A stretch of DNA of 64,000 bases from Chitinophaga pinensis (GTDB lineage: Bacteria > Bacteroidota > Bacteroidia > Chitinophagales > Chitinophagaceae): contig CALQSB010000001.1 in NCBI GenBank assembly GCA_943333125.1, positions 1-64,000 of the forward strand, written 5' to 3'. Of this stretch, positions 34,014-43,911 are shown one piece after another (the first letter of the stretch is position 1; every line of letters starts with the position of its first letter). The translations under genes and the position numbers were made by a program. A model generated the notes under the pieces. It did not search any database. It saw nothing but the letters and a program-made list of their open reading frames with translations, and had not been told where the DNA came from.

Positions 34014-34105
34014 AAAAGTCTATTTTTTGCGAATTTTGCTTCGCAGTGCAAAGATAAGTTTTGAGGGAGGTTTTGGGGAGAAATTTTTCTGCTGGTAAAG
34101 ATTGT

Positions 34106-34288
34106 TCCAAAGGTTTAATAAGTTCAAGAAGTTCAAAAGGTTATCAAGCATTTCTTCTCGGCAATGTCTCCTGAAAGGGACGTTGCGTATCTGATTAGCG
34201 GAATATTTTGATCTAAAGGTTTCATGAGTTCAATAGGTTCAATAGTCGATAACCTTTTGAACAAATTGAACCTTTCAAACCTCTTGAA
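34106..34288. repeat. Repeat module with nested hairpins between gltX and deoD
   Basis: The 275-base gap contains degenerate repeats like GTTCAAAAGGTT in both directions. GTTCAAAAGGTTATC at 34131-34145 has a perfect inverted copy at 34248-34262. Inside this outer pair lies a second hairpin, GCAATGTCTC (34161-34170) pairing with GGGACGTTGC (34177-34186), which occurs in three more places in the window. The module abuts the deoD stop codon. Confidence 0.75.
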
Positions 34289-34996
34289 CTACATTTTAAT
34301 CGCTGCTTCCAACGCCAGCGTAATCATCGGATTCAAAGATTTTTCTCTTTCGTCGGCAGAAATTTGTTCATGAGTGGGAATCACATCAGAAATAGTAAGC
34401 AGTGTTGCTGCAGTTTTTCCTAAAGTTTGAGCATTTGCAAATAATGCAAAAGCTTCCATTTCTACAGCCATACATTTATGTTCGTCAACAATAGCAGGCA
34501 TAGCAGGATTTTTTCTGTAAAAAATATCGCTGGAATGAATGGCGCCTGATCTTAAAGTTGTTTGTAATTCACGTGCTGTTTCATTGATGATATCAAATGC
34601 TTTTCCCTGATGTGAAATGCTGTTACCTTCAATATCAAAAGCATATTTGGCATAAGTGGATTCGCTGCAGGCGATATCCACATTGATGAGATCATATAAT
34701 TTTATATCAGTATGATAAGAACCTGCAGTGCCGATTCTGATGATACATTCCACTCCATATTCATTAAACAATTCGTAAGAATATATGCCGATAGAAGGAC
34801 AGCCCATCCCGCTGGCGCCGATGGTTATTTTCACATCTTTATAAGTACCAGTATAAAAAAATACGTTTCTTGTAGTGCTGACCAACTTAGGATCGGTGAG
34901 CCACTTTTCGGCTATATATTTTGCTCTCAAAGGATCTCCCGGCATTAAAACAACTGGGGCTATTTCTCCAAATTTTGCGCTGATATGAACACTCAT
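34289..34996 (-). CDS. deoD: Purine-nucleoside phosphorylase (DeoD type)
   Basis: Splits purine nucleosides with phosphate to give the free base and ribose 1-phosphate. The 235-residue hexameric-type enzyme has MPGDPLRAKYIAEKWL, the phosphate and ribose site GASGMGCPSIGIYSYELF, RIGTAGSY, AVEMEAFALF and the catalytic Asp in LLTISDVIPTHE. With upp (51745) and ade (52947) the window carries a small purine and pyrimidine salvage set. Confidence 0.96.
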   Translation of the reverse strand: MSVHISAKFGEIAPVVLMPGDPLRAKYIAEKWLTDPKLVSTTRNVFFYTGTYKDVKITIGASGMGCPSIGIYSYELFNEYGVECIIRIGTAGSYHTDIKLYDLINVDIACSESTYAKYAFDIEGNSISHQGKAFDIINETARELQTTLRSGAIHSSDIFYRKNPAMPAIVDEHKCMAVEMEAFALFANAQTLGKTAATLLTISDVIPTHEQISADEREKSLNPMITLALEAAIKM

Positions 34997-35059
34997 TATA
35001 TTTTTTTAATCGTGAAGATATTCAATTTTATTTAATGAATTTATTTAAGAGGAGGATAA

Positions 35060-35090
35060 AAAAATGCTGCATTCATTTTGAATGCAGCAT
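35060..35090 (-). terminator. Terminator of the lipoprotein gene at 35110
   Basis: ATGCTGCATTCA (35064-35075) pairs with TGAATGCAGCAT (35079-35090) around a 3-base loop. Read on the minus strand the hairpin is followed by a run of T, and it lies 20 bases after the stop codon. Confidence 0.85.
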
Positions 35091-35109
35091 CACTATATAA
35101 AAAAATATT

Positions 35110-35949
35110 TTAAGGAAGAGTAATGGTTCTTGTGCTATATCCATCAATTGAAATGGTAGCTAAATTATCACAAAGTCCATTTCCAAAATCCAGTGTGGCA
35201 AAATGAGTAGGCCCCTGAAATCTTATAGAACCCTGATCAACATGATCGCAACTCACTCTTTTGTGTAAAGGTATTTCAATAATGGCGTCACGGGTATTGC
35301 CAGAAGCGTTTGTAACCTGAGACGAGCCGGTAATGGTATATCCATCATCTAGTAAATAATGAGGGGTATTGCCGCCATCAGACTGAGTAATTTGTTTTAA
35401 TCCGCTATGAAGCCAGAATCGTCCATCGGGTGCTGTGATTTTTCCATTTACTACCTGACGTGTCCAGCTTATTATATTGTTTGTTGTGGTATTTGTCCAG
35501 GTAATTATTCCTTCTTTGTGATAACCATTTACATAATATTGATCAAAGGTCATTACTGCTGTACTACCGGTTAATCTGAAAGAATCTGACAATAAGATGT
35601 GAATAATTCCGGAACGGGTTATATTGGAATTAGGGTTAGTGCATCCTGTTCCAAAATCTAAAGTAATGGTTTTTGGAAAGGCACCTTGAGAAACGACAAC
35701 GCTGGCGCAACTATTAGTACCAGAATTAATCATAGGTGCTTTATTACCTGATAAGCCAGCAGTTTCAATTGTTTCTTCTAAAATATTATTGGCATCATCA
35801 GTTAAGCTTTCACTGATAGCTTGCTTTCCAGACAAATCGAAAGTGGTTTCAATTTCTCCATCACCAATCGTTTTGTCTTTTTTGCATGAAGAGAATCCGA
35901 TTAAAGTAAATCCTGCGGCAATTACTAATAATAATTTTTTTGGTTGCAT
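35110..35949 (-). CDS. Uncharacterised lipoprotein
   Basis: A 279-residue exported protein, with a lipobox at GFSSC (Cys22). The body has LSGKQAISESLTDDANNILE, then a beta-rich domain with a repeated pattern around ITLDFGTGCTNPNSNITRSG and ATLDFGNGLCDNLATISID. The similar F-G-x-G-C/LC units suggest an internal duplication. I cannot assign a known family; similar lipoproteins of unknown function are common in Chitinophagales. It has its own terminator and is divergent from the deacetylase at 36016. Confidence 0.78.
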   Translation of the reverse strand: MQPKKLLLVIAAGFTLIGFSSCKKDKTIGDGEIETTFDLSGKQAISESLTDDANNILEETIETAGLSGNKAPMINSGTNSCASVVVSQGAFPKTITLDFGTGCTNPNSNITRSGIIHILLSDSFRLTGSTAVMTFDQYYVNGYHKEGIITWTNTTTNNIISWTRQVVNGKITAPDGRFWLHSGLKQITQSDGGNTPHYLLDDGYTITGSSQVTNASGNTRDAIIEIPLHKRVSCDHVDQGSIRFQGPTHFATLDFGNGLCDNLATISIDGYSTRTITLP

Positions 35950-36015
35950 AATTTATAATTTTGTATTTAAGAAGACTGAAGATATAAATCATAGTTAATA
36001 AATAAAAGGAATCTA

Positions 36016-36651
36016 TTGTTATATTTTGTTAAAACACCGAATTGGTTTTCATTATTTTTCAAAAAAAGAATTTGGAAAATAAAGACAAACGAGCGCAGGC
36101 TATATCTAACATTTGATGATGGTCCTCATCCGTTAATCACTTCATTTGTTTTAGACGAATTGAAAAAGCATCAGGCGAAGGCAACTTTTTTTTGTATTGG
36201 AGATAATGTTGTAAAATATCCGGAAGTTTACAAAAGAATTATTGATGAAGGGCATGCTGTAGGTAATCATACCTTCAATCATTTAAATGGTTGGAAGACA
36301 GATGATAAAATTTATTTAGACAATATAGATAAAGCGAAAAAAATTATTGACAGTGATTTGTTTAGGCCTCCTTATGGAAGAATAACAAGTTTTCAAATCA
36401 GGCAATTGGGCATGAACCGGTTTAAATTAAAAACAATCATGTGGACAGTATTAAGTGGAGATTTTGACAATAATATTTCTAAAGATGCTTGTAAAGAGAA
36501 TGTAATACTAAATGCAGTCAATGGTTCGATTGTAGTATTTCATGACAGTGAGAAGGCAAATGAAAGAATGCGGTATGCACTTCCTGAAGTGTTGAATCAC
36601 TTTTCTAAACAAGGATTTGTGTTCAATAAAATAACTAAAGAAATATTGTAA
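36016..36651 (+). CDS. NodB-family polysaccharide deacetylase
   Basis: The 211-residue protein carries the metal-dependent carbohydrate esterase 4 fold. Motif 1 YLTFDDGPHP, motif 2 GNHTFNHLNG (the H-xxx-H metal site), motif 3 LFRPPYGR and motif 5 IVVFHDSEKA are all present. It could remove acetyl groups from peptidoglycan or another cell-wall glycan. No signal peptide is visible. The start is a TTG at 36016, because no ATG precedes motif 1 and the MLYFVKTPNWF beginning is typical of related proteins. Confidence 0.9.
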   Translation: MLYFVKTPNWFSLFFKKRIWKIKTNERRLYLTFDDGPHPLITSFVLDELKKHQAKATFFCIGDNVVKYPEVYKRIIDEGHAVGNHTFNHLNGWKTDDKIYLDNIDKAKKIIDSDLFRPPYGRITSFQIRQLGMNRFKLKTIMWTVLSGDFDNNISKDACKENVILNAVNGSIVVFHDSEKANERMRYALPEVLNHFSKQGFVFNKITKEIL

Positions 36652-36661
36652 AAAAAAGAAA

Positions 36662-36692
36662 GGCCTGAGTAGAAACTCTGGCCCGTTTTTAA
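36662..36692 (+). terminator. Weak terminator after the deacetylase gene
   Basis: GGCC-T-GAGT (36662-36670) pairs with ACTC-T-GGCC (36675-36683) with one T-T mismatch, followed by CGTTTTTAAT. It fits the end of the deacetylase transcript but is weaker than others in the window. Confidence 0.5.
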
Positions 36693-36836
36693 TCCGTACC
36701 CTATGAAAACTGTAAACAAGATAAGTAGTTTAATGTGGTTTACCAATATATCTTTTTGAATATGTATAACACATTTTAAATGCGCTTGAATTACGACAAG
36801 TGCTATTATGGATTTTGACGTTTTAATTAAATAATC

Positions 36837-37601
36837 ATGATTATAGATACCCATTGCCATCTTTATTTACCTGAGTTTGAAAAAGACATCAGTGAGGTAA
36901 TAAAAAGAGCAGAAAATAATGGAATTACATCACTATATCTTCCGGCAATAGACAGTAGTACACATTCAAGTATGATTGATCTTGAAAACCGCTTTCCTGA
37001 GCGTTGCTTTTCAATGATGGGATTGCATCCCTGTTCAGTGAAGGAGGATTATCTTAATGAATTGATGATTGTTGAAAATTATTTGACAGAAAAAAAATTT
37101 TATGCGATTGGAGAATGTGGCCTTGATTTTTACTGGGATAAAACTTTTATTAAAGAACAGATTCATGCTTTGGAATTTCAGCTTGCCCTTTCAATTCAAT
37201 ACGAATTACCGATAATCCTTCATACCCGAAATGCAACACAGGAAACCATTGATGTAATCAGACCGCATTCATCTAAAAAATTAAAAGGAATATTTCATTG
37301 CTTTGGAGGCAGTGTGGAAGAGGCAAATCAGATTATTGAAATGGGATTTTATCTGGGAATAGGAGGTGTGATTACGTATAAAAATGCCGGATTGGATCGG
37401 GTGCTTGAACAGATAGACCTTAAGCACATGGTATTGGAAACAGATGCACCTTATTTAACACCGGTTCCCCATCGAGGAAAAAGAAATGAATCTTCCTATT
37501 TGAAAATAATTGCCGAAAAAATAGCAATGATTAAAAATTGTAGTTTTGAAGAAGTAGCAAAAACAACGAGTGAGAATGCGATAATGGTTTTCGGAAAATA
37601 A
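36837..37601 (+). CDS. TatD family metal-dependent hydrolase (DNase)
   Basis: The 254-residue TIM-barrel protein has the metal ligands in DTHCHLYLPEF, GECGLDFYWD, LHTRNA, IFHCFGGS and ETDAPYLTP. TatD-family members are nucleases acting on DNA ends and RNA. It lies 27 bases before murF on the same strand; this tatD-murF pair is probably co-transcribed. The fold and all motifs are complete. Confidence 0.94.
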   Translation: MIIDTHCHLYLPEFEKDISEVIKRAENNGITSLYLPAIDSSTHSSMIDLENRFPERCFSMMGLHPCSVKEDYLNELMIVENYLTEKKFYAIGECGLDFYWDKTFIKEQIHALEFQLALSIQYELPIILHTRNATQETIDVIRPHSSKKLKGIFHCFGGSVEEANQIIEMGFYLGIGGVITYKNAGLDRVLEQIDLKHMVLETDAPYLTPVPHRGKRNESSYLKIIAEKIAMIKNCSFEEVAKTTSENAIMVFGK

Positions 37602-37628
37602 CAAACACCAAACACCAAATTAAATAAC

Positions 37629-38912
37629 ATGAACATCAACGAGCTATACGAAATCTACTGCCAATATCCTTCGATACAAACAGATACGCGTAGACTAAAA
37701 CAAGGAGACCTTTTTTTTGCCTTGAAAGGTGATAATTTCAATGGAAATGAATATGCACATGCCGCATTAGAAAAAGGAGCTTCCTATTGTGTAGTAGATG
37801 AGGTGATAGGTACTGAAGATAGTCGTTTATTGAAAGTGGACGATGTGCTTATTGCTTTACAGGCTTTAGCAAAGAAACACAGAACACAATTCAATATTCC
37901 TTTCATCGCCATAACAGGAAGTAATGGTAAAACAACAACTAAAGAACTGATTCATGTAGTGCTGTCTTCAACATATAAAACCTACACAACAGAAGGCAAT
38001 TTGAATAATCATATTGGAATTCCACTCACCATCCTCAAAATAAAAAAAGATGCAGAAATGGCTGTAGTGGAAATGGGAGCCAATCATCTTAAAGAAATTG
38101 AAGGTTATTGCGCCTACACCATGCCTACTCATGGTTTAATTACGAACTGTGGAAAGGCTCATCTGGAAGGCTTTGGCGGTGAAGAGGGCGTGAGAAAAGG
38201 TAAGGGGGAATTGTTTGAGTATCTCAAATCCTCAAATGCAACTATGTTTGTGTTTAACGATTACGATTACCTGCAAAATATGAGCGAAGGTTATGATCAT
38301 ATCATCAGCTATGGAAGTGAAAATGAACATTCGGATTTTGTGGGCAAGATGATTGGAGATAAACAATTTCTGGAAGTATCAATAATAAAAGGTGCACATA
38401 TCAGCAACATAAAAACACAGTTAGTAGGGGGATATAATTTACCTAATGTGCTTTCTGCTGTATGTATTGGTAAAACATTCAAAGTTTCCGACGAAAAAAT
38501 AAAATCATCTTTAGAATCTTATACGCCTTCCAATAGCAGATCTCAATTAATAATAAAAGATACCCATACAATTATTCTTGATGCATATAACGCCAATCCA
38601 AGCAGCATGAAACTGGCAATTGAAAATTTCGCAGGAATGCCCGGGAAGAATAAAATTATGATGTTGGGAGGAATGATGGAGCTGGGCAAAGAAAGTCATC
38701 AGGAACATGTTAGTCTTATTCAATTGATTAAACAATATCAATGGCTTCATGTGGTGTTAGTAGGAGAGCAATTTAAAAATATTCATGGAGATTTTCATTA
38801 TTTTAACACCTCCACTGAGGCCAGGGATTGGTTTATTACTCAGCATTTCTCCAATACAAATTTGTTAGTCAAAGGATCCCGTAGCATGCAAATGGAAAAG
38901 GTTTTAGAATGA
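37629..38912 (+). CDS. murF: UDP-N-acetylmuramoyl-tripeptide--D-alanyl-D-alanine ligase
   Basis: Adds D-Ala-D-Ala to the UDP-MurNAc-tripeptide, the last cytoplasmic step of peptidoglycan precursor synthesis. The 427-residue protein has the P-loop AITGSNGKTTTKE (94-106), VVEMGANHLKEIEGY, the carbamylated-lysine segment GVRKGKGELFEYL, and DAYNANPSSM (318-327). All catalytic motifs are complete, in contrast to the MurF domain fused to alanine racemase at 24883. The tRNA-Ser gene follows 45 bases after its stop. Confidence 0.96.
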   Translation: MNINELYEIYCQYPSIQTDTRRLKQGDLFFALKGDNFNGNEYAHAALEKGASYCVVDEVIGTEDSRLLKVDDVLIALQALAKKHRTQFNIPFIAITGSNGKTTTKELIHVVLSSTYKTYTTEGNLNNHIGIPLTILKIKKDAEMAVVEMGANHLKEIEGYCAYTMPTHGLITNCGKAHLEGFGGEEGVRKGKGELFEYLKSSNATMFVFNDYDYLQNMSEGYDHIISYGSENEHSDFVGKMIGDKQFLEVSIIKGAHISNIKTQLVGGYNLPNVLSAVCIGKTFKVSDEKIKSSLESYTPSNSRSQLIIKDTHTIILDAYNANPSSMKLAIENFAGMPGKNKIMMLGGMMELGKESHQEHVSLIQLIKQYQWLHVVLVGEQFKNIHGDFHYFNTSTEARDWFITQHFSNTNLLVKGSRSMQMEKVLE

Positions 38913-38936
38913 TTTTTAATTCAGCGTTATAGCACG

Positions 38937-38944
38937 TACATTTG
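38937..38944 (+). promoter_or_regulatory. -7 box of the tRNA-Ser promoter
   Basis: TACATTTG matches TAnnTTTG and lies 13 bases before the first base of the mature tRNA, a sensible distance for a short 5' leader. The -33 region has no clear TTG, so only the -7 box is well supported. Confidence 0.5.
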
Positions 38945-38957
38945 CTGCCCGTAAAAC

Positions 38958-39044
38958 GGAGAGTTGTCCGAGTGGCTGAAGGAGCACGCTTGGAAAGCGT
39001 GTATATGGGAAACTGTATCGAGGGTTCGAATCCCTCACTCTCCG
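38958..39044 (+). tRNA. tRNA-Ser (anticodon GGA)
   Basis: The acceptor stem GGAGAGT pairs with ACTCTCC at the 3' end, with discriminator G at 39044. The anticodon stem is CACGC/GCGTG around the loop TTGGAAA, giving anticodon GGA for UCC and UCU serine codons. The long variable arm (about 14 bases) and the T-arm with GGGTTCGAATCCC confirm a type II tRNA. The 87 bases exclude CCA, which is not encoded. It has its own -7 box and a terminator. Confidence 0.97.
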
Positions 39045-39048
39045 CATC

Positions 39049-39086
39049 AAAAGGATGTTTCATGAAAATGAGCATCCTTTTTTTAT
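39049..39086 (+). terminator. Terminator after tRNA-Ser
   Basis: AAAAGGATG (39049-39057) pairs with CATCCTTTT (39073-39081) across a 15-base loop, followed by TTTATG. The tRNA thus forms its own short transcription unit. Confidence 0.8.
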
Positions 39087-39347
39087 GTTAATTTACCGCA
39101 GAGAACTTTAGGATATGAGTTTTCGCAGAGATTTTTGCCAAGGAGGCACTAAGTTACCCAGGCTATCTAGCTTATCTATCTTATCCAGGCTATCCAGCTT
39201 ATCAAATTTATCCATTCCATTTTTACGCAACGTCCCTTGCAGGAGACATTGCTAAGAAGTAAAAAGTTTCACTAAGATTTATCCTCTATCCAGAATATCC
39301 AGCATCCCTCTGTACTAAACTCCTTTTCTCCTTTCTCCGCGGTGAAT
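39087..39347. repeat. Repeat modules between tRNA-Ser and gldJ
   Basis: No supportable gene lies here. From left to right it holds TTTACCGCA with the word ATATGAGTTTTCGCAG (39113-39128; also at 20018-20033), a degenerate series of about 11-base units like CTTATCCAGGCTAT and AGCTTATC (39160-39215), and one copy of the hairpin GCAACGTCCC (39227-39236)/GGAGACATTGC (39242-39252). The same first two modules occur in the same order after iscA. Confidence 0.7.
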
Positions 39348-39372
39348 AAAAAAAACCTCCCATTTGGGAGGT
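39348..39372 (-). terminator. Terminator of gldJ
   Basis: On the minus strand ACCTCCC and GGGAGGT pair around a 4-base loop (39355-39372 on the plus strand) and are followed by a run of T. It lies 20 bases after the gldJ stop codon. Confidence 0.85.
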
Positions 39373-39392
39373 CTCTTTTTATTAAAGCTATT

Positions 39393-40952
39393 TTATTTTT
39401 TTCGGGTATTTTGTTTGCGTTTTCCAAAAAGGTTACCTTCTTTAAATCCAGGTCCTTCTGGTGGTCCGAGATAACTTTGAGCACAACGGAAACCAACTGT
39501 AGAAGATCCTTGGTCTTCTTGCATATAACGACGTGCTCCAGGAGAAAGCCAGTAAGCTCTGTCGTTCCAGCTGCCGCCTTTTATTACTCTAGATTTATCA
39601 TTGATTAATGTAGTTACTCCATATTGGTAAGAGGCACTGCTGGCAGAATCTCCATCAAGATAATTGATTACATTATTACGCTGATAATTGGTTCTGTTTT
39701 TAACTTCCTCATCAGAGATATCAACTTTCTTTAAATGACCAAGACTGTCTCTTTCAAATTCTCCGCTACTGTTTTTATAATATTTCTGAAATTTATTACC
39801 ACGGAAATAGTTGAAATCCTGTCCATCAGTAGGAGTTAAAGGTCTGTAAACATCACCAACCCACTCGCTCACATTACCACTCATATTATACAATCCAAAA
39901 GCATTAGGATAGAAAGCTTTAATTGGACCTGCAATTGCAGCTCTGTCATTCAAGCCACCAGAAACACCCATGTTATCTCCACTGGTGCGTTTAAAGTTGG
40001 CTAAGAATTTTCCTTGCCATGTACCATGACGATTATCTCTTAACCCATTAATATTTTTACTCCAAGAATAAATTTGTTGATTAGAACGTAATTCTTCTCC
40101 ACTTTTGGTTTCTTTTTTACGCGGAGATGGATTTTGGTCCAGTAAACCATAAGCAGCATATTCCCATTCTGCTTCTGTAGGTAAACGATATCCAATATTC
40201 AGAATACCATCTTCCATTCTAACCGTATTTCTTGTTTTATTATTGATATCTTTTAAATCAGATTTTTTAGGTTTTGTTCTTCCCTGAATCATATCGGGAT
40301 TCATCAGATAAGCTTCGGTATTAAAAGAGCCATCAGCACCAGAACCTTTCATTTCTTTTTTAGCGGCATCTTTTTTTAGATAGCCTTTTTTCATCAGATT
40401 AAATTCGTTGACACGATCAGTTCTCCACATACAGAAATCATGAGATTGCTGCCAAGTTACGCCTACTACGGGATAATAATTATAAGATGGATAGCGGAAA
40501 TAATACTCCACGTATGGTTCGTTATAAGCCAATTCTTCTCTCCAGCATAATGTATCTGGAAGGCATTTGGCCATTACAGCGGTATCCCCACTAAAGGTGT
40601 TATCTACCCAGTATAAATATTCTCTATAGTGCACATTGGCAACTTCAGTTTCATCTATAAAAAAGGAAGGAACGGTAACCCTGCGAGGAATATTATTCCA
40701 ATCGCCCATTACATCTTCTTCTTTCGCGCCCATTACAAATGAGCCACCTTGTACAAATACTAAACCCGGACCAGCTTTTGGATACTTAACTTTAGAAACA
40801 TGGAAATTACCCATGTTTTTATCGTCATAACTCCATCCAGTTACACCAGACGTTTCTTTCTTCTTGCCAAATACTCCACAGGAATTCAAAGTAATAGCAG
40901 ATAATCCTAAAATAATTAGGGACTTTAATGAGATTGTTTTTTGCATGTGCAT
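39393..40952 (-). CDS. gldJ: Gliding motility lipoprotein GldJ (SUMF1-like)
   Basis: The 519-residue lipoprotein (lipobox LNSC, Cys25) has the formylglycine-generating-enzyme-like domain of GldJ and GldK. The segment PGLVFVQGGSFVMG then DWNNIPRRVTVPSFFIDETE, and later YRLPTEAEWEYAAYG and GLYNMSGNVSEWVGD, match GldJ better than GldK because of the conserved DWNN-PRRVTV stretch. GldJ is needed for gliding and stabilises other type IX secretion parts in Flavobacterium. An in-frame ATG at 40946 is an alternative start. The gene is divergent from porV. Confidence 0.88.
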   Translation of the reverse strand: MHMQKTISLKSLIILGLSAITLNSCGVFGKKKETSGVTGWSYDDKNMGNFHVSKVKYPKAGPGLVFVQGGSFVMGAKEEDVMGDWNNIPRRVTVPSFFIDETEVANVHYREYLYWVDNTFSGDTAVMAKCLPDTLCWREELAYNEPYVEYYFRYPSYNYYPVVGVTWQQSHDFCMWRTDRVNEFNLMKKGYLKKDAAKKEMKGSGADGSFNTEAYLMNPDMIQGRTKPKKSDLKDINNKTRNTVRMEDGILNIGYRLPTEAEWEYAAYGLLDQNPSPRKKETKSGEELRSNQQIYSWSKNINGLRDNRHGTWQGKFLANFKRTSGDNMGVSGGLNDRAAIAGPIKAFYPNAFGLYNMSGNVSEWVGDVYRPLTPTDGQDFNYFRGNKFQKYYKNSSGEFERDSLGHLKKVDISDEEVKNRTNYQRNNVINYLDGDSASSASYQYGVTTLINDKSRVIKGGSWNDRAYWLSPGARRYMQEDQGSSTVGFRCAQSYLGPPEGPGFKEGNLFGKRKQNTRKK

Positions 40953-41349
40953 TCGTTTTGCAAATTGGTTAACGAAGGGTTTTCTTATTTATTGTATTAA
41001 TTTGGGTTACAATCGATGCGAATATATAAACTTTCGCTTGATTCGAAATTAATTTTACCATTTTGTTAGTAAAAAATTAAAAACTAAAATTTTCATGCAA
41101 CGATTTTTATAATTCATTTGTCATAACATTCCTTAATTCAACTTAATTCATAACTAAATGCAATATTTAGAAATGAATCTTCGTTTTGAAAAGTACAATC
41201 ATTAATTAGCTTGTCAATTTTTTAATTTTTGACATTTTTTAAAAAAAATATTGGTGATTTCAATAAAACTATTATTTTTACAACTCAAACAAAATTAACA
41301 CACACAGCTTATAGATAGAAACTCTACCTAACCAAGACAATAAAATCGC
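40953..41349. other. Divergent control region between gldJ and porV
   Basis: These 397 bases are very AT-rich and hold no supportable gene. A clear promoter for porV lies at 41251-41280. On the minus strand TATATTCG at 41026-41019 could be a -7 box for gldJ with one mismatch, and its -33 region is weak. Long 5' leaders seem likely on both sides. Confidence 0.5.
41251..41280 (+). promoter_or_regulatory. Promoter of porV
   Basis: TTG at 41251-41253 and TATTTTTA at 41273-41280 are 19 bases apart; only the last base of the -7 box departs from TAnnTTTG. The transcript would begin near 41286, leaving a leader of about 64 bases before the ATG. Confidence 0.65.
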
Positions 41350-42486
41350 ATGAAACAAGCAACTTTGAGACTAACTGCTCTAGTTATGTTATTAACGGGT
41401 TCAGTTACTGCAACCCAGGCACAATCAGATCCAATTAACGTAGTAACATCTGCCGTTCCTTTTTTAAGAATTTCTCCTGATGCACGCGCTGGCGGTATGG
41501 GTGATGTAGGTATCGCGACTGCTGCTGATGCCAATTCTGGATACTGGAATTTAGCAAAAACTCCATTCGCAAAAGATAAAATGAGCATAACTGCTTCTTA
41601 TACTCCATGGTTGAGTGATTTGAAACTAAACGACGTTTATTTAGCTTCTTTGGCTGGATACTATCAATTAGATGAAACTCAGGCTATTTCTGCTTCTTTA
41701 AGATATTTCAGCTTAGGAAGTATTCAGTTTACTGATTTCAGTGGAAATGCATTACAATCATTTCGTCCTCGTGAGTTCGCATTTGATGCAGGATATTCAA
41801 GAAAACTTTCTAGTAAAATCGGATTGGGTGTAGCGCTTCGCTATATTAGTTCTGATCTTGCAGGTGGAAGTGTAAACGGAGTTACCTATAAAAAAGGTAC
41901 TTCTGTAGCAGGTGATGTTCACTTCTTTTACAAAGGAACAAATGCAAGTGGCAACGGATTCGATTGGGGTGCTACTCTAACTAACTTAGGTTCTAAAATT
42001 TCTTATACAAGCGATGCTAGTCAGAAAGATTATATTCCTGCTAACTTCGGTATCGGTTGTGCTTATAATAAAACATTCGATGCTGATAGCAAAATCACTT
42101 TTGCTTTGGATATAAACAAATTAATGGTACCAACTCCTCCAAGTGCAACGGATTCTGCTTCTTTGGTTGATTATCGTTCTAAAGGTGTGGTATCAAGCTG
42201 GTTCAGCTCTTTCGGTGATGCCGGAAAAGATGAATTGAAAGAAGCTACTTTAGCAGTAGGTTCTGAATACTGGTACAAAGATCAGTTCGCATTCAGAGCT
42301 GGTTATTTCTTCGAAAATAAAATCAAAGGAGATCGTCGTTATTTCACTTTGGGCGCTGGCTTAAAGTATAACATGATGGGATTAAACTTCTCTTACTTGC
42401 TACCAACTGGTTCAGGGGTTAACCGTAATCCTCTTTCAAATACATTGCGTTTCAGCTTAGTGTATAACATGGATTCAAAAAAATAA
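41350..42486 (+). CDS. porV: Type IX secretion system outer-membrane protein PorV
   Basis: The 378-residue protein has a signal peptide (cleaved after about TQAQ) and a beta-barrel. The N-terminal INVVTSAVPFLRISPDARAGGMGDVGIATAADANSGYWN is the PorV/FadL-like hallmark. PorV (LptO) receives cargo of the type IX system in the outer membrane and works with the sortase PorU and others. porU, often next to porV, is not in this window. The gene has a strong terminator and its own promoter. Confidence 0.9.
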   Translation: MKQATLRLTALVMLLTGSVTATQAQSDPINVVTSAVPFLRISPDARAGGMGDVGIATAADANSGYWNLAKTPFAKDKMSITASYTPWLSDLKLNDVYLASLAGYYQLDETQAISASLRYFSLGSIQFTDFSGNALQSFRPREFAFDAGYSRKLSSKIGLGVALRYISSDLAGGSVNGVTYKKGTSVAGDVHFFYKGTNASGNGFDWGATLTNLGSKISYTSDASQKDYIPANFGIGCAYNKTFDADSKITFALDINKLMVPTPPSATDSASLVDYRSKGVVSSWFSSFGDAGKDELKEATLAVGSEYWYKDQFAFRAGYFFENKIKGDRRYFTLGAGLKYNMMGLNFSYLLPTGSGVNRNPLSNTLRFSLVYNMDSKK

Positions 42487-42503
42487 TTTCTGATAACTTT
42501 TAT

Positions 42504-42541
42504 AAAAAGCGTTTCTTTAACCGGAAACGCTTTTTTATTTT
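42504..42541 (+). terminator. Terminator of porV
   Basis: AAAAAGCGTTTC (42504-42515) pairs with GAAACGCTTTTT (42524-42535) around an 8-base loop, followed by more T. Confidence 0.9.
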
Positions 42542-42560
42542 TGCAAAACTCAATTTTTTA

Positions 42561-42697
42561 AAAAGTTTAAAAAGTTTCAAAGGTTCAATATGTTCAAAAG
42601 GTTAGTTCATCGGTAAAATACTAGCCAACCAAACAACATAACTTCTTAAACCTTTTGAACCTCTTAAACCTTTTGAATCTCTCAAACCTTTTGAACT
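42561..42697 (+). repeat. Inverted and 18-base tandem repeats before ispF
   Basis: GTTCAAAAGGTT at 42592-42603 has a perfect inverted copy at 42649-42660. The word AAACCTTTTGAA recurs at 42648, 42666 and 42684, exactly 18 bases apart, forming three units (about 42643-42697). The last unit ends 7 bases before the ispF start codon. The same words occur between gltX and deoD. Confidence 0.8.
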
Positions 42698-42704
42698 TAC
42701 AATT

Positions 42705-43193
42705 ATGTCATACCGAATCGGCTCCGGCGTAGATTTTCATCAGTTAGCAGCAGGCAGAGACCTTTGGATTGGTGGTGTAAAAATTCCTCATCATAAAGGA
42801 TCATTAGGACACAGCGATGCAGATGTGTTGCTGCATGCCATATGCGATGCAATGCTGGGAGCTTTGGCATTAGGCGATATCGGAAAACATTTTCCCGACA
42901 CCAGCAGTGAATTTAAAAACATCGACAGCAAAATTTTACTCAAACGCAGTTTTGATTTGATTACCGAAATGGGTTACCAGGTTGTCAATATAGATAGTAC
43001 ATTATGCCTCGAGGCCCCCAAAATTTCGCCTTATGTTGAAGAAATGAGAAAGGCAATATCAACAGTGCTGGCAATTAATATTGCTGATGTTTCTATCAAA
43101 GCCACAACAACAGAAAAAATGGGATTTGTGGGCAGAGAAGAAGGTCTGGTGGCTTATGCAACAGTATTACTAAAACGCATAAACGAAAATTAA
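42705..43193 (+). CDS. ispF: 2-C-methyl-D-erythritol 2,4-cyclodiphosphate synthase
   Basis: Fifth enzyme of the MEP isoprenoid pathway. The 162-residue protein has the zinc ligands Asp and His in [11 protein letters not shown] and the conserved [30 protein letters not shown], and the C-terminal [17 protein letters not shown]. Length and motifs are normal. It lies 2 bases before dut. The repeated 18-base sequence reaches almost to its start codon, so its translation start may sit in a structured leader. Confidence 0.97.
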
Positions 43194-43195
43194 AA

Positions 43196-43639
43196 ATGTC
43201 CGAAATAAAAATAAATGTCATCAATCACTCTGGAAATCCACTGCCTGAATACGCAACATTGGGTTCTTCAGGAATGGACATCAGAGCACATTTAAATGAA
43301 CCGGTAACTTTAAAACCACTCGAAAGACAATTAATTCCTACAGGATTATATTTAGCATTACCTGAGCATTATGAAATTCAAATCAGACCAAGAAGTGGAT
43401 TGGCATTTAAACAAGGGATTACTTGTTTAAACACACCCGGTACCATTGACAGCGATTACCGTGGTGAAATAAAAGTATTACTGATTAATCTGAGCAGCGA
43501 AGATCAAACTATTCATAAAGGAGACAGAATTGCACAATTAGTAGTTTCAAAAACTGAACGAGCTCATTTAAATCAAGTTGAAATATTAGATGAAACGGTA
43601 AGAGGTATAGGAGGGTTTGGACATACGGGAGTGAGGTGA
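43196..43639 (+). CDS. dut: dUTP diphosphatase
   Basis: Hydrolyses dUTP to dUMP to keep uracil out of DNA. The 147-residue trimeric-type enzyme has all five motifs: [39 protein letters not shown] (with the catalytic Asp in IDSDY), GDRIAQLVV, and the C-terminal [10 protein letters not shown]. It directly follows ispF, and a tandem repeat follows after its stop. Confidence 0.97.
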
Positions 43640-43650
43640 GGATGGAAAGG

Positions 43651-43808
43651 CTGGATAAAGCTGGAGAAGTCTACATTCTAAGCATTGTCTCCTGAAAGGG
43701 ACATTGCGTAATAAGTAAGCTAGATAAAGCTGGATAAAGCTGGAGAAGTCTACATTCTAAGCATTGTCTCCTGAAGGGACATTGCGTAATAAGTAAGCTA
43801 GATAAAGC
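43651..43808. repeat. 79-base tandem duplication with hairpin motif
   Basis: Two nearly identical units (43651-43729 and 43730-43808) each contain CTGGATAAAGCTGGAGAAG, TCTACATTCTAAG, the hairpin GCATTGTCTC/GGGACATTGC and CGTAATAAGTAAGCTAGATA. They differ in length by one base. The hairpin is the same family as at 34161 and 39227, again next to units of about 11 bases (GATAAAGCTG). No gene is supported here. Confidence 0.85.
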
Positions 43809-43911
43809 TAGATAGGCTAGGTTTAAAAGGTGTAACATGTTTTTCTGAATTGGATAATACCTTTGAAACATTTGGAGCTTCTTAAGGCGCTTAAACATTT
43901 GAAAAATAATA

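What the first reader, a model, noticed from the sequence alone, without database searches (positions are those of the whole stretch)
34161..43785. Dispersed hairpin family with four copies in three gaps
A 25-26 base element occurs at 34161-34186, 39227-39252 (opposite strand), 43682-43707 and 43761-43785. Its arms GCAATGTCTC and GGGACGTTGC can form about 10 pairs with a 6-base loop. Base changes between copies (C to A on one arm, or T-G versus T-A) mostly keep pairing, which suggests selection on a folded DNA or RNA. It always lies in gaps between genes, next to degenerate repeats of about 11 bases. I know of no named family with this sequence.
Basis: seen in the sequence. Interest (0 to 1): 0.55.

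Follow-up and report, generated by a model that had tools for sequence, protein, structure and literature searches.

The report
Orphaned REP hairpins and broken transposase
The four hairpins belong to a family of about 84 short DNA hairpins scattered between the genes of this bacterium; comparison with relatives ties them to a small single-strand-DNA transposase, of which only a broken copy was found in this genome.

Summary
The four window elements belong to a 36-base family with about 84 copies in the genome, 79 of them outside reading frames, and with matches in 38 of 93 genomes of the genus, very unevenly. Relatives reveal the cognate gene: a REP-associated tyrosine transposase (RAYT) flanked by the same hairpins, forward upstream and reversed downstream. 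In this genome the only copy of that RAYT found has lost about 360 bases, including both catalytic motifs, and still sits between inverted hairpins. At 68 of 80 related RAYT loci, nearly all Bacteroidota, nearby hairpins share one plan: 8 base pairs ending GTC/GAC, then a T that can stay unpaired, and often a GNA triloop. Outer stem and 5' foot follow the RAYT tree. This is an REP family of the poorly described Bacteroidota RAYT group (subclass 2.6 / group 5): no GTAG tag, direct arrays rather than REPIN doublets. Movement is inferred, not shown.

The parts
34154..34189 (+). REP hairpin copy 1 (foot CTTCTCG, core 34161-34186, tail GTA), between a Glu/Gln-tRNA-synthetase-like gene (-) and a phosphorylase-superfamily gene (-); co-directional gap
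   Evidence: CM R1 61.4 bits; same hairpin at the orthologous place in G075, and one beside the same synthetase-like gene in G073; genes
39224..39259 (-). REP hairpin copy 2, between a tRNA gene (38958-39044) and an FGE-sulfatase-like gene (-)
   Evidence: CM R1 61.1 bits; tRNA; R1 in the same gap of G073, G080 and G085, while in G075 that gap holds a tandem array of another hairpin
43675..43710 (+). REP hairpin copy 3, in the gap between dUTPase-like and DUF4292 genes; one stem pair broken (T-T)
   Evidence: CM R1 53.8 bits; G075 has one copy in this gap, this genome has two
43754..43788 (+). REP hairpin copy 4, a tandem duplicate of copy 3 (79-base spacing), one loop base missing
   Evidence: CM R1 45.0 bits; direct repeats 96-98% identical (families D3 and D5)
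34104..34152 (.). degenerate 9-base GTTCAA-type repeats beside copy 1 (also 34210-34290); accompanying feature, not shown to be part of the element
   Evidence: the repeat finder spacing 9
39149..39210 (.). degenerate 9-base TATCC/GGATA-type repeats beside copy 2 (same type beside copies 3 and 4); accompanying feature

Best explanation
The element is an REP (repetitive extragenic palindrome) family: a non-autonomous single-strand-DNA hairpin that was spread by a cognate RAYT, a Y1/HUH transposase-like enzyme. Inferred mechanism: when the strand is single (for example on the lagging-strand template), the 5' foot TTCTCA, the 8-bp stem, the unpaired T and the GNA-loop tip form the recognition structure; the RAYT binds only that strand, cuts next to the hairpin and joins it into single-stranded DNA elsewhere, and insertions survive mainly between genes and less often in divergent (promoter) gaps. 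Further copies arise by tandem duplication. In this genome the only copy of the cognate RAYT that was found (contig C57) has lost about 360 bases including the HUH and tyrosine motifs, so the hairpins are probably ageing relics. Shown: copy number, location, anatomy, bracketing of intact relatives of the RAYT, the broken gene, sites shared with relatives, and hairpin sequence following the RAYT tree. Inferred: binding, cutting, movement and strand choice.
For: 80-85 copies in the genome. 79 of 84 lie outside ORFs, where 91% of the window is ORF, and few in divergent gaps (8 of 66 against 13 of 33 window gaps, p=0.003). The RAYT of G073 has 5 hairpins upstream (+) and 3 downstream (-); the RAYT of G009 likewise 5 and 3. 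Of the 15 loci of this RAYT clade in the genus that one search scanned (L205-L219), 9 have R1 matches at E<=0.01; of 14 loci of other RAYTs in the same call (L221-L234) none. Remnant C57:7227-7400, 86% identical over residues 1-58, then a frameshifted piece of the C-terminal end, between hairpins 7155(+) and 7471(-). Of 80 RAYT loci from named records 68 have the GTC-T...GAC hairpin within 700 bases, 47 of the 74 with room on both sides have it on both sides in the expected orientation; 183 hits in the expected and 43 in the other orientation; control RAYT clades 3 of 27 and 6 of 23, none on both sides. T after GTC in both copies in 43 of 46 loci. Stem and foot need fewer changes on the RAYT tree than in any of 300 shuffles (37 vs mean 48.4; 15 vs 29.2). 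RAYT model pLDDT 90.7, best PDB match 4er8, a RAYT bound to a REP hairpin.
Against: No GTAG/GGAC foot; neighbouring copies are direct (23 of 25), not inverted REPIN/BIME doublets. No intact copy of the cognate RAYT in the genome; G075, G080 and G085 carry 52, 45 and 17 copies with no RAYT of this clade found, although these genomes are estimated only 88, 90 and 79% complete. In the genus the link between RAYT presence and copy number is only moderate (at least 10 copies in 7 of 16 RAYT+ genomes, remnant counted, and 9 of 77 others, p=0.006). Four of the 15 genus loci of this RAYT clade have no R1 match at all (L211, L213, L214, L215) and two only weak ones (L217, L218); L211, L214 and L215 have a related hairpin with another outer stem, L213 showed none and L218 a different one. 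One R1 copy lies about 150 bases upstream of another RAYT (C12) that has its own hairpins. 12 of 80 RAYT loci lack the strict motif. Following the RAYT tree is also what plain joint inheritance would give. The NCBIfam RAYT model scores 61-76 bits for four members, below its cut-off of 80. No fresh insertion was seen.
Confidence: 0.86

Rival explanations
1. The hairpins are kept as RNA-level elements (intrinsic terminators, mRNA 3' stabilisers) and the RAYT link is only their origin.
For: Depleted in divergent gaps, 18 of 66 in convergent gaps; the six strands folded as DNA fold better than nearly all shuffles.
Against: Only 5 of 84 copies have TTTT within 10 bases after the hairpin and 0 of 84 an A-run before it, as the other strand would need; among co-directional gaps 24 copies read with the genes and 16 against; 32 of 82 copies have at least one broken pair; no Rfam match in the window apart from a tRNA.
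Confidence: 0.12
2. The copies are still being moved in trans by one of the other Y1 transposases in this genome (for example the C12 or C45 RAYT).
For: Five Y1 genes are present; one R1 copy lies about 150 bases upstream of the C12 RAYT.
Against: In the flanks I read, each of the five has other hairpins near it (by eye); of 30 C12-type loci only 2 have R1 within the fetched flanks, of 30 C45-type loci none.
Confidence: 0.08
3. An intact cognate RAYT exists in this genome but falls in an assembly gap, so the family is active rather than orphaned.
For: Draft of 85 contigs; several contig ends carry R1 copies (C17, C34, C36, C61, C62, C75, C80), which is what a RAYT bracketed by repeats would cause.
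Against: Estimated completeness 99.95%; a broken, bracketed copy is present inside contig C57; G075, G080 and G085 also lack it as far as held; window sites are shared with relatives whose flanks are 73-98% identical.
Confidence: 0.2
4. Chance palindromes or ordinary simple-repeat debris of A+T-rich gaps.
For: Gaps also hold degenerate repeats.
Against: 80 places against 0 in the control; the same 36-mer in unrelated gaps and in other genomes.
Confidence: 0.01

Closest known systems
REPs of RAYT subclass 2.6 (Quentin et al. 2018, PMC6006769; = Bertels group 5), Bacteroidota
   Same: Same phylum; [quoted passage not shown] gene flanked by palindromes without GTAG, copies elsewhere in the genome
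   Different: The passages I read call the structures atypical and weaker, found by manual inspection, and give no consensus; here a common plan is given (8 bp ending GTC, bulged T, often a GNA tip). Their table S1 and profiles could not be read here
E. coli REP/BIME and TnpAREP (PDB 4er8)
   Same: Small HUH/Y1 enzyme (best fold match), asymmetric hairpin with a stem irregularity that is needed for activity there (PMC8266576, passages)
   Different: GTAG foot absent; direct arrays instead of alternating inverted pairs; sequence profile match only E=0.0032
REPINs of Pseudomonas (group 3 RAYT)
   Same: Non-autonomous hairpins thought to be mobilised in trans (abstract of PMC3116915 seen in a listing only)
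   Different: No inverted doublet, no GTAG here; bulged stem
IS200/IS605 ends (IS608)
   Same: Single-strand hairpin with an unpaired T contacted by the transposase (T17; passage of PMC8266576); 5' guide position
   Different: Here the same hairpin type on both sides of the gene and a high copy number of the hairpin alone; I saw 1-3 RAYT copies of this clade per genome in the genus search
CGTC-tagged REPs (PMC3733652, passages)
   Same: Extragenic palindromes also reported from Bacteroidetes
   Different: CGTC there is an unpaired end tag and no transposase is linked; here CGTC/TGTC lies inside the stem and a RAYT is linked

Membership tests
REP/RAYT system (REPtron) | 20-40 nt palindrome in high copy, extragenic | tested here: met
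   84 copies, 79 outside ORFs
REP/RAYT system (REPtron) | RAYT gene flanked by the same repeats in inverted orientation | tested here: met
   G073 and G009; 47 of 74 loci for the general plan; in the window's genome only a broken copy, bracketed
REP/RAYT system (REPtron) | RAYT fold with HUH and tyrosine motifs | tested here: met
   NHxH, Y, H, NP invariant in the 13 rows of A4; Foldseek best 4er8; NF047646 E=7e-19 for the G073 protein but below its cut-off
REP/RAYT system (REPtron) | enzyme binds and cuts the single-stranded repeat; repeats move | not testable with these tools
   no biochemistry; no fresh insertion found
GTAG-type REP | 5' GTAG or GTGG tetranucleotide | tested here: not met
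   foot TTCTCA in 62 of 84 copies, no GTAG or GTGG among the 12 commonest feet listed
REPIN / BIME | inverted doublets | tested here: not met
   23 of 25 neighbour pairs within 400 bases in the same orientation
RAYT subclass 2.6 / group 5 | NH[LIV]H, SS motif, HUH-to-Y distance about 82, Bacteroidetes, non-GTAG palindromes | tested here: met
   (distance counted on the G073 protein only); criteria from PMC6006769
RAYT subclass 2.6 / group 5 | YIH[QN]NP tyrosine motif | tested here: inconclusive
   YIHDNP in G073; N, D, E, H or K at that place in A4
RAYT subclass 2.6 / group 5 | published subclass profile, WQ motif, 21-residue insertion | not tested
   profile not available here; the other two not examined
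CGTC-type REP | unpaired CGTC tag, no transposase | tested here: not met
   CGTC/TGTC is inside the stem; a RAYT is linked
Intrinsic terminator | hairpin followed by a T run | tested here: not met
   5 of 84, and 0 of 84 for the other strand

The most novel reading that the evidence does not exclude
One clade of Bacteroidota RAYTs reads a modular single-strand hairpin: a shared part (GTC, unpaired T, GAC, often a GNA-type tip) and a variable address (outer five base pairs and foot) that changes together with the protein, so that the specificity code of an ssDNA transposase can be read from natural variation. In this lineage the hairpin population has outlived its enzyme, perhaps in several species.
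Probability: 0.45. Interest if true: 0.65.

Novelty: new variant of a known kind. Interest (0 to 1): 0.48.

Why it matters
REP biology has been worked out mostly with GTAG-tagged repeats of Proteobacteria (from the papers named here and recall). Here the repeats of the Bacteroidota RAYT group receive a clear common plan, a set of 80 gene loci (68 with hairpins) for testing which residues read which base pairs, and a genome in which the cognate enzyme seems dead while about 84 copies remain, a natural case for asking how such populations age. If the intact relatives prove active, the variable outer stem offers a natural experiment on the specificity of single-strand transposition.

Tried and rejected
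Rfam search of the window at gathering thresholds: only a tRNA. Recurrent ORF beside the hairpins: the largest group held 7 ORFs of 6 loci, not identified further, and I saw no transposase-like recurrence (names only; no family search was run on them). The C12 RAYT as cognate: rejected, it has GTTGGTG/CACCAAC hairpins and only 2 of 30 homologous loci have R1 nearby. The C45 RAYT as cognate: rejected, 0 of 30 loci. Stem with 10 pairs and bulged C11: about as good within this genome (17 against 18 doubly changed cells); I prefer the bulged-T register because in 18 of 46 loci of the clade only it pairs in both copies, in 27 either register can pair in at least one copy, and in none only the direct one. 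Two of the five covariation measures do not exceed their shuffles (pairs with a double change 66 of 500, further pair types 203 of 500). With DNA parameters the two C/G-closed copies tested fold without the bulge, so the bulge remains a model there. Terminator reading: rejected. Genus-wide RAYT/copy-number link: only moderate. Paper searches for REPs in Chitinophaga, for IS200 extrahelical bases, for GNA triloops and for Ferruginibacter hairpins listed 0 papers. That IS608 has an unpaired T comes from a passage; that GNA triloops are unusually stable in DNA is recalled, from no call.
Full report
What was checked. A two-arm pattern has 80 places per strand in the 2.85 Mb genome at up to 3 mismatches and none for the reversed control. 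Aligning 17 copies showed that conservation runs past the palindrome: a 5' foot CTTCTCA and a 3' GT. A covariance model of 36 positions (R1, built from 16 copies) lists 85 matches at E<=0.01 (one place is listed on both strands). My script over the fetched loci, not the whole genome, gives 84 non-overlapping copies on 34 contigs: 82 have a 26-base core, 81 of these 82 have T at position 9, 62 of 84 have exactly TTCTCA as foot and 72 of 84 GT as tail.

Anatomy. The copies vary most at the tip. Positions 12 and 16 are T-A in 59 and C-G in 18 of 80 copies with distinct flanks; the three loop bases fit GNA in 70 of 80. Counted on 71 distinct rows, 95.4% of cells are paired and 18 cells are changed on both sides, 16 of them at that one pair; 22 cells are changed on one side and keep a pair, 36 break it; two of five measures do not exceed their shuffles. 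So within this genome the stem alone does not prove selection on each copy; the apical pair may reflect two subfamilies. With DNA energies window copy 1 folds as 8 bp, bulged T, 3 bp, triloop (-7.3 kcal/mol, 1 of 200 shuffles as good) and its opposite strand less well (-5.0); two C/G-closed copies fold without the bulge in that model.

Place. Seventy-nine of 84 copies lie outside ORFs of 90 or more codons as my script called them, where 91% of the window is ORF. Of 66 copies with both neighbours visible (13 more lay at an edge), 40 are in co-directional, 18 in convergent and 8 in divergent gaps; the window's gaps of 60 bases or more are 16, 4 and 13 (p=0.003 for divergent; the background is this one window). 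Neighbouring copies within 400 bases are in the same orientation in 23 of 25 cases, so these are direct arrays, not REPINs. Thirty-six of 84 copies have at least three GGATA- or GTTCAA-type repeats within 120 bases, against 1 of 17 window gaps without the element.

Relatives. In a draw of 294 genomes of the family 34 have one at E<=1e-5, in 20 of 101 genera. The genus is probably Ferruginibacter: contig C25 of G060 has the length (32,154) of a record titled Ferruginibacter sp. RYN_298; this is an inference. Where orthologous gaps were held, window copies are mostly shared: gap 1 with G075, and a copy beside the same gene in G073; gap 2 with G073, G080 and G085, whereas G075 has an array of another hairpin there; gap 3 has one copy in G075 and in G085 and two here (flanks 73-98% identical). 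The window insertions are therefore not recent, and copy number changes by tandem duplication. One place in G073 has R1 copies where the compared stretch of this genome (C16) has none between the matched flanks, which I did not resolve further.

The enzyme. The genome has five Y1-type genes, two of them above the NCBIfam RAYT cut-off; in the flanks I read each has other hairpins. Scanning Y1 loci of eight relatives with R1 gave two loci with many hairpins: G073:C145 and G009:C34. In both a RAYT of about 190 codons stands between hairpins that face the same way upstream and the opposite way downstream. A search with that protein at E<=1e-8 matched 53 of 93 genomes, other RAYT kinds included; matches at E<=1e-30 lie in 15 genomes, G073 among them, and the window's own genome has only residues 1-58 at 86% identity (E=1.1e-30) on C57, followed by a frameshifted piece of the C-terminal end, between R1 copies. 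The alignment of C57 with G073 skips about 360 bases, which removes the HUH and tyrosine motifs. Of the 15 loci scanned for those genomes, 9 have R1 matches at E<=0.01, L217 and L218 weak ones and L211, L213, L214 and L215 none; 14 loci of other RAYTs have none at E<=0.01. By eye L211, L214 and L215 have hairpins of the same plan with another outer stem. In the genus, at least 10 R1 copies occur in 7 of 16 genomes with this RAYT (the remnant counted) and 9 of 77 without (p=0.006).

The clade. A motif of five free bases plus GTC, T, and the complementary arm (at least 7 of 8 pairs) was found within 700 bases of 68 of 80; in 47 of the 74 with room on both sides it occurs upstream forward and downstream reversed; 183 hits have the expected and 43 the other orientation. 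Two other RAYT clades gave 3 of 27 and 6 of 23 loci, none on both sides (only those of the 30 loci each that had full flanks). A detection that did not use the motif found inverted partner hairpins at 59 of 80 loci; without the G073 record 58, of which 46 have GTC/GAC stems in both copies, with T next in both in 43. On the RAYT tree (76 rows, 64 labelled) the outer stem changes 37 times against a mean of 48.4 and a minimum of 44 in 300 shuffles, the foot 15 against 29.2 and 24; joint inheritance alone would also give this. Among 59 distinct short-tip hairpins at these loci without G073, 34 have a GNA triloop, in 20 of 34 loci; 13 more are G-CCT-C. The predicted structure of the G073 RAYT (pLDDT 90.7) matches PDB 4er8, a RAYT bound to a REP hairpin, best of all, then mainly ISDra2 and IS608 transposases.

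Compared with what is known. Quentin et al. 2018 (PMC6006769; passages and section 13 read) describe a Bacteroidetes subclass 2.6, equal to Bertels group 5, with NH[LIV]H, YIH[QN]NP, an SS motif, a median of 82 residues between motifs, and palindromes that lack GTAG, have a weaker structure and were found by hand. The clade here fits on the points tested except the strict tyrosine motif (YIHDNP in G073); its WQ motif, insertion and profile were not tested. A 2021 NAR paper on REPtrons (PMC8266576; passages) reports that bulges and the 5' tetranucleotide matter for recognition and that only one strand is processed; I carry this over by analogy. CGTC-tagged REPs (PMC3733652; passages) differ. 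Nunvar 2010 (PMC2817692) holds none of the six terms I looked for; PMC8049555 none of the terms on RAYT loss. Bertels 2017 was not held.

Verdict. Real, and explained: an REP family of a Bacteroidota RAYT group, in a genome where the only copy of the cognate RAYT found is broken. The new part is the common hairpin plan and its change along with the enzyme. Movement itself, and whether the family is fully orphaned here (the genome is a draft and R1 copies sit at contig ends), remain open.

Noticed in passing
G000:C3:90740, C6:53364, C44:6334, C12:28644, C45:8155 (loci L016-L020, L060): Five other Y1 transposase or RAYT genes, each with its own hairpin type nearby (for example CCCACCGTTGAAACGGTGGG, TGTTCCATAGGAACA, CGACCCCTTCAGGGTCG, GTTGGTGTTTTCACCAAC); the genome seems to hold several independent hairpin families.
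   Followed up: partly
L160 (G075:C36), about 192-639: In G075 the gap orthologous to window 39090-39305 holds a tandem array of about 45-base units with another hairpin (GACTCGGTCAAAAGACCTTCGTCGGC) instead of the R1 copy.
   Followed up: no
window 34104-34290, 39149-39290, 42547-42698, 43640-43820: Degenerate 9-base repeats (GCTGGATAA-like and GGTTCAAAA-like), partly in inverted arrangement, enriched near R1 but also alone at 42547-42698; origin and role unknown.
   Followed up: partly
G000:C69:5940-6307 (L037): R1 array +,+,+,- whose flanks match stretches of the RAYT locus of G073; possibly a second place from which a RAYT was lost altogether.
   Followed up: no
G000 contigs C17, C34, C36, C61, C62, C75, C80: R1 copies lie within a few hundred bases of contig ends, so these arrays probably break the assembly.
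   Followed up: no
L243 (CALPIT020000145.1): A record titled Streptomyces griseus whose contig holds this Chitinophagaceae-type RAYT locus (same length and sequence as the G073 contig): the title looks wrong.
   Followed up: no
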